Program-made: the position numbers and the translations under genes
The notes under the pieces: model-generated
What the model was told of the DNA's origin: nothing
Seen by the model: the letters and a program-made list of their open reading frames with translations, nothing else
Database searches by the model: none
Part shown: piece after piece, positions 1 through 3,828 of the stretch
How positions within the stretch are numbered: the first letter of the stretch is position 1
How the letters are laid out: every line of letters starts with the position of its first letter
NCBI GenBank assembly: GCA_008501785.1
Contig: QQUD01000787.1
Location: 1-5,437 of the forward strand
Source of the DNA: Chloroflexota bacterium
Lineage (GTDB): Bacteria > Chloroflexota > Anaerolineae > Promineifilales > Promineifilaceae
Direction: 5' to 3'
Length of the DNA: 5,437 bases

Positions 1-1733
1 GGGCCTTGCAGCGCGTTTACGGCCGTTTCCGCCACATCCCAATAACGGCCGTCTCCCGTATACAAACCCATCTTAAGCAGCACATGCGCAGCCATTGCGT
101 TGGCGCTAGGTGTGGCATTGTCCTGCACGTCTTTGGGCCGGTGCAGCAATGCTTCATGATCGTCCGAAGTGTCATAAAAACCACCATTGCCTTCGTCTAT
201 GAAATGGGTGAGCATCATATCAGTCAGCTCTTGTGCCCAGACAAACCAGCGCTCATCAAATGTGGTTTGGTAAAGTGCTAACAGTCCATCTGCCAGATAG
301 GTATAATCTTCAAGGTAAGCATTGTACTTGGCTTTGCTGCCTGCTTTCCAGGTGCGGAGCAAACGGCCGTTTGCCTTTACCCGCATATTTTCATACAAAA
401 ATTCCGCATTTTGTACCGCTATATCTGTGTAATCTGGCCGGTTAAGCACGCGGCCTGCTTCGGCAAATGAGGCTAGCATCAACCCATTCCACGCCGTCAA
501 CACCTTATCATCCAATCCGGGCCAAATGCGTTGTGATCGGACGGCGTACAGCTTTTTTCGCGCCGCAGCCAGACGAGCGTGCATCGTTTCCCCATCCAAA
601 TTGGACATACGAGCCACTTCTTCTGGCTCTCGCGGTACATTGAGAATGTTGTTGCCTTCCCAATTGCCGCGTTCGCTCACGTCGTAATAGAGCATGAATA
701 AATCTGCTCCATCACCCAGATGTTCACGAATTTCGGCAGGTGTCCACACATAAAATTTGCCTTCGACCCCTTCGCTGTCGGCGTCGTAACTGCTGTAAAA
801 GCCGCCAGACTCGTGCCGCATCTCGCGCATGACAAAATCCAGCGTTTCTTCAGTAATGCGGCGGTAAAGTGGGTTGTCCGTGACTTGATAAGCGTGCAAG
901 TAGACCCGACTTAATAGTGCATTGTCGTACAGCATTTTTTCGAAATGAGGGACAAGCCAATGGATATCTGTCGAATATCGGGCAAACCCGCCGCCTAATT
1001 GGTCATACATGCCGCCATACGCCATTTTTTGCAAGGTTTTTTCGACCATATTGCGTGCCGCTTCGTCTTCTTTTTGTAAGGTAAGGCGCAGCAAAAATTC
1101 AAGGGTCATGGAAGGTGGAAATTTAGGTGCTGGTCCGAACCCGCCCTGTTCGTTGTCAAATTTGCCTTGAATGGTGATGAGTGCCTGGCTGTAGAGGGAA
1201 TCATCTAGCAAAATGCCCTGTGCATCTAATGCAAAGGTATGGCTGAGATGGCTGGAAATGTCGGATGCACTCCTGTCTATATCTGCTCGCTTGGTTTGCC
1301 ATGCTTGCACAATGCTGTTCATTAACTGCAAGAAACTGGGCATACCAAATCGAGGTGTAGGTGGATAATAGGTTCCGCCGTAAAACGGCCGTCCGTCGGG
1401 TGTCAAGAAGACTGTCATCGGCCAGCCGCCTTGCCCGGTCATAGCCACGACAGCTTGCATGTAAATGCTGTCGAGATCGGGGCGCTCTTCTCGATCTACT
1501 TTGATGTTGATGAAGTGTTGGTTCATGAAAACGGCCGTATTCTCATCCTCAAACGACTCATGCGCCATCACATGACACCAATGGCACGCCGCATAGCCGA
1601 TGCTCAACAAGATTGGCTTGTCCTGCGCTTTTGCTAAATTGATCGCTTTATCTCCCCACGGATACCAATCAACAGGATTCTCAACATGTTGCAGCAGGTA
1701 GGGACTTGTTTCGTTTGCCAGATGGTTGGGCAT
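1..1733 (-). CDS. DUF255 thioredoxin-domain protein (YyaL/SPATA20 family), C-terminus cut by window edge
   Basis: Read on the minus strand from ATG at 1733-1731, this frame stays open for 577 codons to the left edge. The N-terminus (MPNHLANETSPYLLQH, then NPVDWYPWG at 19-27) is the hallmark start of the DUF255 / YyaL / SPATA20 family. A thioredoxin-like domain covers about residues 5-165, with the CxxC motif at Cys50-His-Trp-Cys53 (GYAACHWCHVMAHESF), then KVDREERPD at 78-86 and GGWPMTVFLTPDGRPFYGG at 102-120. The rest is helical and resembles the (alpha/alpha)6 barrels of N-acylglucosamine-2-epimerase-like proteins: QLGGGFARYSTD, HFEKMLYDNA, YDADSEGVEG, LDDKVLTAWNGLMLAS, and near the edge a DNATPSANAMAA motif. 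Family members usually run near 680-700 residues, so roughly 100 residues probably lie outside. No signal peptide is visible, so it is probably cytoplasmic. The biochemical role is not established; a redox function is inferred only from the CxxC. The start is supported by a Shine-Dalgarno sequence. It is divergent from the membrane-protein gene at 1852. Confidence 0.95.
   Translation of the reverse strand, partial: MPNHLANETSPYLLQHVENPVDWYPWGDKAINLAKAQDKPILLSIGYAACHWCHVMAHESFEDENTAVFMNQHFINIKVDREERPDLDSIYMQAVVAMTGQGGWPMTVFLTPDGRPFYGGTYYPPTPRFGMPSFLQLMNSIVQAWQTKRADIDRSASDISSHLSHTFALDAQGILLDDSLYSQALITIQGKFDNEQGGFGPAPKFPPSMTLEFLLRLTLQKEDEAARNMVEKTLQKMAYGGMYDQLGGGFARYSTDIHWLVPHFEKMLYDNALLSRVYLHAYQVTDNPLYRRITEETLDFVMREMRHESGGFYSSYDADSEGVEGKFYVWTPAEIREHLGDGADLFMLYYDVSERGNWEGNNILNVPREPEEVARMSNLDGETMHARLAAARKKLYAVRSQRIWPGLDDKVLTAWNGLMLASFAEAGRVLNRPDYTDIAVQNAEFLYENMRVKANGRLLRTWKAGSKAKYNAYLEDYTYLADGLLALYQTTFDERWFVWAQELTDMMLTHFIDEGNGGFYDTSDDHEALLHRPKDVQDNATPSANAMAAHVLLKMGLYTGDGRYWDVAETAVNALQG
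19..26. repeat. Iterated palindrome ACGGCCGT, copy 1
   Basis: Within the DUF255 gene, read in frame as Thr570-Ala-Val572. Context on the minus strand is GAAACGGCCGTAAAC. Confidence 0.9.
45..52. repeat. Iterated palindrome ACGGCCGT, copy 2
   Basis: Within the DUF255 gene, read as Asp561-Gly-Arg563. Its start is only 26 bp from the start of copy 1, the closest pair in the window. Confidence 0.9.
359..374. repeat. Iterated palindrome ACGGCCGT, copy 3, extended to 16 bp
   Basis: The octamer (363-370) lies in a perfect 16-bp palindrome, GCAAACGGCCGTTTGC. It is in the DUF255 gene, where the octamer reads as Asn455-Gly-Arg457. Confidence 0.9.
1385..1392. repeat. Iterated palindrome ACGGCCGT, copy 4
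   Basis: Within the DUF255 gene in the third frame, read as Gly114-Arg-Pro116-Phe. Here the protein motif (TPDGRPFYGG) is itself conserved in the family. Confidence 0.9.
1531..1538. repeat. Iterated palindrome ACGGCCGT, copy 5
   Basis: Within the thioredoxin-like domain of the DUF255 gene, read as Thr66-Ala-Val68. Plus-strand context is GAAAACGGCCGTATTC. Confidence 0.9.

Positions 1734-3828: not shown

What the first reader, a model, noticed from the sequence alone, without database searches (positions are those of the whole stretch)
19..3740. Highly iterated palindrome ACGGCCGT, nine copies in 3.8 kb, in all three reading frames
Seen: exact copies start at 19, 45, 363, 1385, 1531, 2004, 2343, 3335 and 3733. 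A random 8-mer is expected about 0.06 times in 3.8 kb. Every CGGCCG in the window lies inside this octamer, so the flanking A and T are part of the signal. Most copies extend to AAACGGCCGT or ACGGCCGTTT. Copies in both genes are read as TAV (frame 1), N/D-G-R (frame 2) and R-P (frame 3), so selection acts on the DNA and not the protein. Known parallel: HIP1 (GCGATCGC) in cyanobacteria, which is linked to DNA methylation. Inference: a lineage-specific iterated palindrome that may be a methylation, uptake, nucleoid or repair signal. I know of no described element with this sequence.
Basis: partly seen in the sequence, partly recalled or inferred. Interest (0 to 1): 0.8.

Follow-up and report, generated by a model that had tools for sequence, protein, structure and literature searches.

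The report
DNA-wide repeated palindrome in Chloroflexota
An eight-letter palindrome is written thousands of times into the genomes of one family of uncultured Chloroflexota bacteria, and as densely into viral DNA that carries it, apparently because some unknown process in the cell keeps turning near-matches into exact copies.

Summary
The nine ACGGCCGT copies are real (0.04 expected) and sample a genome-wide pattern. In one family of Chloroflexota (52 genomes searched), 27 carry ACGGCCGT at about 1-2 per kb, up to 15,176 copies in 7.5 Mb. Elsewhere in the family other forms dominate: TCGGCCGA (G153, G454), GCGGCCGC (G240), CGGCCG with free flanks (six genomes), TGCCGGCA (G457). Codon bias is refuted: where the protein allows the octamer by synonymous change, 722 of 791 places hold it in G419 (null 8.5%; non-HIP controls 7 of 164); near-misses fixable synonymously are depleted 7-14-fold. 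Sites are kept 110/111 at 90-98% identity (control 59%). The bias (log-odds 4.4-5.7; one thin sample 3.6-3.9) is similar in coding, intergenic and viral DNA, and HIP1 gives 4.0-5.6 in cyanobacterial plasmids and phages. Four of the 27 octamer-rich genomes show neither a PF00145 nor a PF01555 methyltransferase. I read it as a HIP1-like element of a second phylum, most likely kept by biased repair; weak selection is not excluded.

The parts
19..26 (.). ACGGCCGT copy 1
   Evidence: exact match
45..52 (.). ACGGCCGT copy 2
   Evidence: exact match
363..370 (.). ACGGCCGT copy 3
   Evidence: exact match
1385..1392 (.). ACGGCCGT copy 4
   Evidence: exact match
1531..1538 (.). ACGGCCGT copy 5
   Evidence: exact match; all five copies of this gene fall on alignment columns where 8 to 17 of the 31 aligned DUF255 genes have the octamer
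2004..2011 (.). ACGGCCGT copy 6
   Evidence: exact match
2343..2350 (.). ACGGCCGT copy 7
   Evidence: exact match
3335..3342 (.). ACGGCCGT copy 8
   Evidence: exact match
3733..3740 (.). ACGGCCGT copy 9
   Evidence: exact match
3..1733 (-). host gene of copies 1-5: thioredoxin-domain protein of the DUF255/YyaL kind, cut by the window's left end
   Evidence: Pfam PF03190, E 9.7e-77; best full-length family ortholog 75% identical
1852..3828 (+). host gene of copies 6-9: 658-aa protein, probably membrane-bound; some homologues are named glycosyltransferase family 39, most hypothetical or unnamed
   Evidence: no Pfam hit; 103 homologues listed, the query itself included

Best explanation
ACGGCCGT is a highly iterated palindrome (HIP) of a Chloroflexota family, the same kind of thing as cyanobacterial HIP1 but with a different sequence. 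Shown: it is enriched about 60-fold over a Markov expectation in carrier genomes, fills most places that the protein sequence allows, is kept in orthologs far better than other octamers, and fills viral contigs almost as fully. Inferred: a sequence-specific process acting on all DNA replicated in the cell (most likely mismatch correction that prefers the strand carrying the HIP) shifts the balance of gain and loss of the exact octamer by about 100-fold, so that sites accumulate to a mutation-bias equilibrium without each site needing a function. The factor itself is not identified.
For: Genome-wide: 27 of 52 family genomes at 0.99-2.10 per kb; the word read backwards gives 40-459 per genome in those rows. 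957 copies vs 16.1 expected in 550,614 bp of 25 genomes, 554 vs 15.8 in 199,271 bp of 17 viral loci. Codon null: 722 vs 62 (G419), 567 vs 46 (20 genomes), 373 vs 29 (viral loci), 600 vs 36 (TCGGCCGA in G153), 47 vs 4.5 (GCGGCCGC in G240), 7 vs 9.5 in non-HIP controls; core near-misses whose repair is synonymous 17/229, 17/170, 13/97, 18/139, 0/26, controls 23/26; those whose repair changes the protein 0.64-1.11, controls 0.77. Occupancy of synonymous-reachable places (up to four changes away) 722/791, 567/641, 373/439, 600/756, controls 7/164. Coding log-odds, by hand: 4.7, 4.5, 4.6, 4.4. Intergenic ln(O/E) 4.7-5.0 (G419), 4.7-4.8 (20 genomes), 4.9-5.5 (viral), 5.2-5.7 (G153), 3.6-3.9 (G240, 3 copies only); controls 0 copies with about 0.5 expected. 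HIP1 by the same script: 4.55 and 4.04 in stretches of two cyanobacterial plasmids, 4.80-5.56 in three Nostoc/Anabaena phages. Conservation: 110/111, 148/163, 132/152, 166/351, 263/658 kept at 90-98, 84-90, 78-84, 72-78, 66-72% identity vs 0.594, 0.360, 0.241, 0.150, 0.118 for 6-GC control octamers. Proteins shifted: TAV 406 vs 43-105 for its five permutations in G419, controls 36 vs 26-46; [NDHY]GR 272 vs 56-132, controls 86 vs 45-92. MutL in 48 of 52 genomes.
Against: A codon-bias-like selection of 2Ns about 4-5 per site gives the same equilibrium, and Xu et al. 2018 are cited as favouring selection for HIP1 (seen only as cited in PMC6604393). No enzyme or binding factor was found. In G153 the sites are spaced more evenly than random (CV 0.871, 0 of 500 simulations as low), while in G419 they are clustered (CV 1.112); gaps under 30 bp are short of expectation in both (17 vs 31; 24 vs 45); a blind mutational process predicts neither. 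The dipeptide RP is not enriched over PR beyond controls (394/296 vs 341/254). Synonymous flank near-misses are low in controls too (8/22), and viral loci are laxer at the flank (32/44 vs 9/52 in G419). The viral loci were chosen because they hold a close pair of sites and for density. HIP1 plasmids are filled less (84/123, 47/78) and their synonymous near-misses less depleted (6/17, 7/15) than here; only plasmid stretches, no cyanobacterial chromosome, were tested. Residual near-misses are richer in C-to-T than in transversions (hand sums over four sets: 21/52 at C2 and C5 vs 16/298 for G<-C at positions 3 and 4), which may hint at a methylated cytosine or only at ordinary transition bias.
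Confidence: 0.55

Rival explanations
1. Weak natural selection for a function of each site (nucleoid organisation, self-recognition, repair landmark) with 2Ns about 4-5 per site keeps the octamers.
For: Same equilibrium mathematics; strong retention in orthologs; even spacing in G153 and shortage of gaps under 30 bp in G153 and G419; symmetric flank preferences, GGnnACGGCCGTnnCC in G419 and WTCGGCCGAW in G153, also in intergenic copies, as for a bound dimer.
Against: Selection strength would have to be alike in chromosomes, viral DNA and cyanobacteria; sites fill 79-91% of permissible places rather than stopping at a useful density; they shift protein sequence. None of this is decisive.
Confidence: 0.28
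2. A cytosine methyltransferase acting on CGGCCG or GGCC, coupled to mismatch repair as Elhai proposed for HIP1 (G-meC-directed repair), builds the sites.
For: Elhai 2015 reports that every cyanobacterial genome with a highly overrepresented sequence has a putative matching methyltransferase; GGCC contains G-C; excess of C-to-T among residual near-misses.
Against: At E<=1e-10, PF00145 is in 23 of 52 and PF01555 in 35 of 52 genomes; 14 genomes have neither, among them 4 of the 27 octamer-rich ones: G419 (14,867 copies), G462 (11,512), G226 (5,641), G467 (6,919). All four have ComEC; the first three also have MutL, G467 does not. Of 59 methyltransferase ORFs taken from 60 best loci the largest group at 45% identity has 7 members; lower-ranked hits were not clustered. 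Genomes may be incomplete and unbinned plasmids could carry an enzyme. The A, T or G flanks do not create G-meC.
Confidence: 0.12
3. DNA uptake signal spread by transformation, with dialects as in Neisseriaceae.
For: ComEC in 47 of 52 genomes; dialect switching; wide dispersal.
Against: Palindromic; nearly saturated in viral DNA; fills most permissible places, while one site per fragment would do. The comparison with Neisseriaceae is recalled, not tested.
Confidence: 0.04
4. Codon bias or chance.
For: Coding copies favour one frame: 407 TAV-frame, 246 GR-frame, 87 RP-frame of 740 in G419.
Against: Codon-shuffle nulls and intergenic enrichment.
Confidence: 0.01

Closest known systems
HIP1 (GCGATCGC) of cyanobacteria
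   Same: Octameric palindrome with a six-base core, one-off variants mostly at the first and last base (Elhai's abstract; here); similar log-odds bias in plasmid stretches and in phages of Nostoc/Anabaena.
   Different: Different core (CGGCCG), different phylum, denser (about 2 per kb in G419 vs 0.5-0.7 per kb in the HIP1 plasmid stretches), higher filling of permissible places, family-wide flank dialects, no C-methyltransferase family common to all carriers.
Alternate HIPs of single cyanobacteria (GGGATCCC, TCGATCGA, GGCGCC and others; Elhai 2015)
   Same: Replacement of one iterated palindrome by another between relatives.
   Different: Elhai calls the exceptional ones sporadic; here one octamer holds across 27 genomes of a family, and most variants keep the CGGCCG core (G457 does not; G392, G456 and G364 also have more GCCGGC than CGGCCG).
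DNA uptake sequences (Pasteurellaceae, Neisseriaceae)
   Same: Short, dense, dialect-forming (recalled).
   Different: Not palindromic (recalled); here viral DNA is filled too.
Vsr very-short-patch repair
   Same: A sequence-specific mismatch repair that shifts oligonucleotide abundance (recalled).
   Different: Acts on T:G mismatches (recalled); here transversion near-misses are depleted most. Vsr genes were not searched for.

Membership tests
Highly iterated palindromes (HIP1 kind) | palindromic octamer strongly over-represented genome-wide | tested here: met
   27 of 52 genomes; 957 vs 16.1; first by O/E of 256 palindromic octamers in G419, G153 (TCGGCCGA), G240 (GCGGCCGC), G457 (TGCCGGCA) and the viral loci
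Highly iterated palindromes (HIP1 kind) | deviations concentrated at first and last base, core intact | tested here: met
   order-4 model: position 1 one-offs 277/61, core positions 45/44, 35/72, 23/36; control taxa 62/51, 35/36, 50/58, 28/43
Highly iterated palindromes (HIP1 kind) | sites kept in orthologs beyond protein constraint | tested here: met
   84/87 vs 2631/4793 at >=85% identity with the encoded residues identical; pairs share genomes
Highly iterated palindromes (HIP1 kind) | resident methyltransferase recognising the site | tested here: not met
   no PF00145 or PF01555 hit at 1e-10 in G419, G462, G226, G467; specificity of the enzymes in other genomes is unknown. Elhai notes HIP1 genomes without the CGATCG enzyme, so I do not take this as excluding membership of the wider kind
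HIP1 proper | sequence GCGATCGC | tested here: not met
   0 GCGATCGC in G419 ORFs against 14 to 15 expected
DNA uptake sequence | preferential uptake of DNA carrying it | not testable with these tools
   only ComEC presence, 47 of 52
Phosphorothioate (Dnd) site | dnd genes in the carriers | tested here: not met
   DndC in 6 of 52 genomes, 5 over the cut-off
Restriction site under avoidance | site rare in phages | tested here: not met
   viral loci are enriched, 373 vs 29; these loci were chosen for density

The most novel reading that the evidence does not exclude
Highly iterated palindromes are a general, convergent product of a sequence-specific repair bias of about 100-fold that acts on any DNA replicated in the cell, phage DNA included, with similar strength in Chloroflexota and cyanobacteria; it needs no cytosine methylation, its specificity drifts in the flanking bases, and it is strong enough to shift protein sequences.
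Probability: 0.4. Interest if true: 0.9.

Novelty: new variant of a known kind. Interest (0 to 1): 0.8.

Why it matters
HIP1 has no agreed explanation (Elhai's introduction says little is known of its significance). A second phylum with its own palindrome, a family-wide set of dialects, carriers without the usual C-methyltransferase families and viral DNA near the same equilibrium allows tests that one lineage could not: which gene tracks the dialect, whether methylation is needed, and whether mutation or selection does the work. The occupancy statistic (share of synonymous-reachable places filled) gives one number that can be compared across hosts, phages and phyla. If the mutational reading is right, a roughly 100-fold preference for one octamer would be a repair activity that I do not know to be described.

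Tried and rejected
A shared methyltransferase: 59 ORFs from 60 best loci clustered, no group across carriers (one search was a faulty first run). Dnd: 6 of 52. Vsr-type repair limited to T:G: rejected as sole cause because transversion near-misses are depleted most; Vsr genes themselves not searched. T-dialect viral DNA: of 76 stretches only L482 (11 copies in 14.7 kb) has more than 6. Naming the family by a megaplasmid match: no near-identical record; Promineifilaceae is an inference from names on homologues. Markov one-off depletion alone was weak (0.48-1.01, controls 0.65-0.96); the signal appeared only when synonymous and nonsynonymous near-misses were split. In six free-flank genomes the hexamer near-miss depletion is milder (98/247). 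Eleven members (G126, G464, G465, G095, G385, G347, G173, G466, G468, G469, G470) show little or no octamer.

Full report
1. Observation. All nine CGGCCG of the window are inside ACGGCCGT. Five lie in a DUF255/YyaL-type gene (PF03190) and four in a gene for a 658-aa protein without a Pfam hit. Keeping the proteins and shuffling synonymous codons gives 0.39 copies, at most 3 in 300 shuffles; 9 of 11 synonymous-reachable places are filled.

2. Where it lives. No genome is held for the window. The closest contig by DUF255 in the first scan, L001 (Anaerolineae by its title), lacks the octamer: 2 copies in the 1.6 Mb of its genome, and none of the 80 loci kept from that scan was dense. Among 396 genomes of its class, 45 had at least one close pair AACGGCCGTN{0,30}ACGGCCGT; 19 had 29 to 263 pairs per strand, one (G210) had 7, the other 25 had at most 3; the reversed control gave 0-4 in all. 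The family around one of the 19 (52 genomes) has 27 members with 0.99-2.10 ACGGCCGT per kb, for example 15,176 in 7.5 Mb (G453), 15,031 in 7.2 Mb (G452) and 14,867 in 7.7 Mb (G419), against 183, 130 and 185 for the word read backwards. The window's DUF255 protein is 75% identical over its length to the best family member.

3. Dialects. In the stretches at hand (about 4-45 kb per genome; two genomes gave no readable sequence) the CGGCCG core is common in most of the family but the outer bases differ: A..T in the majority, T..A in G153 (74 of 91 cores) and G454 (50 of 78), G..C in G240 (54 of 68), no fixed flank in G210, G339, G471, G408, G472 and G262. Genome-wide, CGGCCG against the reversed word GCCGGC is 13,814 to 51 in G240 and 21,019 to 132 in G210, but 447 to 7,315 in G457, where TGCCGGCA has 3,665 copies and ACGGCCGT 14. 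Eleven members show little or no octamer. Flank preferences reach further out and are symmetric, also in intergenic half-sites: G at -4 and -3 in G419 (0.53 and 0.50 of 138), and A or T at -1 in G153 (0.98 of 158).

4. It is not codon usage. With a codon null that leaves out codons overlapping cores, G419 has 722 copies against 62; 20 other genomes 567 against 46; G153 600 TCGGCCGA against 36; G240 47 GCGGCCGC against 4.5; non-HIP controls 7 ACGGCCGT against 9.5. Core one-offs whose repair would be synonymous are nearly gone (17/229, 17/170, 18/139, 0/26), while those whose repair would change the protein are at 0.64-0.82, like the controls (0.77); control synonymous near-misses 23/26. Put as occupancy, 722 of 791 places where the octamer is a synonymous option within four changes hold it in G419, 567 of 641 in the 20 genomes, 600 of 756 in G153, 7 of 164 in controls. 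Proteins are shifted: TAV 406 against 43, 43, 89, 105 and 57 for its permutations in G419, 36 against 26-46 in controls; SA[DE] 428 against 58-167 in G153. RP, the third frame, is not enriched beyond controls (394/296 against 341/254 for RP/PR). My ORF calls are crude (longest non-overlapping frames).

5. Sites are held in place. Across aligned segments of family members, octamers are kept 110/111 at 90-98% identity, 148/163 at 84-90%, 132/152 at 78-84%, 166/351 at 72-78% and 263/658 at 66-72%, against 0.594, 0.360, 0.241, 0.150 and 0.118 for control octamers with six G or C. In the DUF255 alignment (31 genes) with the encoded residues identical, 84/87 against 2631/4793 at 85% identity or more, 302/379 against 8314/31380 at 66-74%. 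Pairs share genomes and are not independent. States one core change away are rarer than in controls (0.062 against 0.328 at 66-72% identity).

6. Viral DNA. A scan of IMG/VR for a close pair returned 98 stretches; 42 of them have at least 5 copies and 1 per kb, up to 49 copies in 12.3 kb. Twenty proteins from six of these contigs were tested: three contigs give a terminase, two of them also a portal protein, one also a major head protein and head maturation protease; the others gave FtsK-like, lytic, sulfate-reductase-like or partition proteins. Seventeen dense loci, most not tested for hallmark genes, give 373 copies in ORFs against 29, synonymous core near-misses 13/97, occupancy 373/439; they are laxer at the flank (32/44 against 9/52 in G419). 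They were chosen for density, and their hosts are unknown.

7. One number. The log-odds of octamer versus not, relative to the null, is 4.4-4.7 in coding DNA of G419, the 20 genomes, viral loci and G153 (by hand), and 4.7-5.7 in their intergenic DNA; G240 gives 3.6-3.9 from 3 copies. For HIP1 the same script gives 4.55 (Trichormus plasmid, 84 of 123 places filled), 4.04 (Synechocystis pSYSM, 47 of 78) and 5.56, 5.25, 4.80 in three Nostoc/Anabaena phages (30/37, 30/38, 33/43). Synonymous near-misses of HIP1 are less depleted in the plasmids (6/17, 7/15), and no cyanobacterial chromosome was tested. A similar strength in chromosomes, viral DNA and two phyla is what a molecular bias predicts, since selection would scale with population size. 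This is an inference: a 2Ns of about 4-5 would look the same in any one genome.

8. Agent. At E<=1e-10, C5 methyltransferases (PF00145) occur in 23 of 52 genomes and PF01555 enzymes in 35 of 52; 14 have neither, among them four octamer-rich ones, G419, G462, G226 and G467. All four have ComEC and the first three MutL, so they are not grossly incomplete, but an unbinned plasmid could still carry an enzyme. Best hits fall into many types; the largest group has 7 members. DndC is in 6 of 52. MutL is in 48 of 52, ComEC in 47 of 52. Spacing is more even than random in G153 (variance/mean 0.72-0.80) but clustered in G419 (1.19-2.33), and gaps under 30 bp are fewer than simulated in both (17 against 31; 24 against 45). 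Residual near-misses lean to C-to-T changes. These last points are unexplained.

9. Literature. ACGGCCGT as a whole word occurs in one unrelated paper of the held library (listing only). 'Highly iterated palindrom' is in 14 papers (listing). Of Elhai 2015 (PMC4390886) I read the abstract, introduction, sections 2.3 and 2.5.3 and the first part of 3.4; of PMC6604393, PMC9239245 and PMC8093824 passages only. Chloroflexi with HIP1 and palindrom: 0 papers. HIP1 with cyanophage: 2 papers; passages of one concern other matters, the other I did not open. Delaye 2011 and Xu 2018 are not held. So a HIP in Chloroflexota was not found in print, which miss most subscription journals.

10. Verdict. A HIP-like element of a second phylum with dialects; new variant of a known kind. 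Confidence that it is a genome-wide, DNA-level element: very high. Confidence in biased repair over weak selection: moderate.

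Noticed in passing
window 1755-1774, 1794-1809, 2489-2515, 2962-2991: Four arrays of seven-base tandem repeats in 5.4 kb, of three unit types; period-7 runs are also common in G419 (55 in 420 kb) and 20 relatives (41 in 400 kb) against 5 in 420 kb of G153 and 3 in 318 kb of controls. Heterocystous cyanobacteria are recalled to have heptanucleotide repeats too.
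   Followed up: partly
L336:1311-1466: A dispersed repeat of about 155 bp with dozens of copies at 81-94% identity in G452, G453, G292 and G312.
   Followed up: no
L043 (Deinococcales contig): GCTCGAGC 13 times in 21.7 kb, next palindromic octamer 3; 12 in ORFs against 1.9 after codon shuffling: a possible further iterated palindrome in another phylum.
   Followed up: partly
L622, L567, L617 (IMG/VR contigs): TGCCGGCA is the leading palindromic octamer (16, 13 and 11 copies in 9.3, 8.6 and 11.3 kb), like the G457 form; hosts unknown.
   Followed up: no
L624, L626, L627 (Nostoc phage N1, Anabaena phage Elbi, Nostoc phage YongM): HIP1 fills 77-81% of synonymous-reachable places in the 50 kb read of each of these phages.
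   Followed up: partly
window 3829-5437: Fall to 26-39% GC with an ORF at 4480-5436 without Pfam match: probably foreign or fast-changing DNA beside octamer-bearing genes.
   Followed up: no
G419 ORFs: Some other palindromes are missing: ACCGCGGT 0 against 50 (two synonymous steps from the octamer in the TAV frame, so perhaps converted), GCGATCGC 0 against 15.
   Followed up: no
G042 (relative of L001): AACGGCCGT sits in clusters on a few contigs (for example C331, C419, C165) of a genome that otherwise has few: possibly foreign or misbinned contigs.
   Followed up: no
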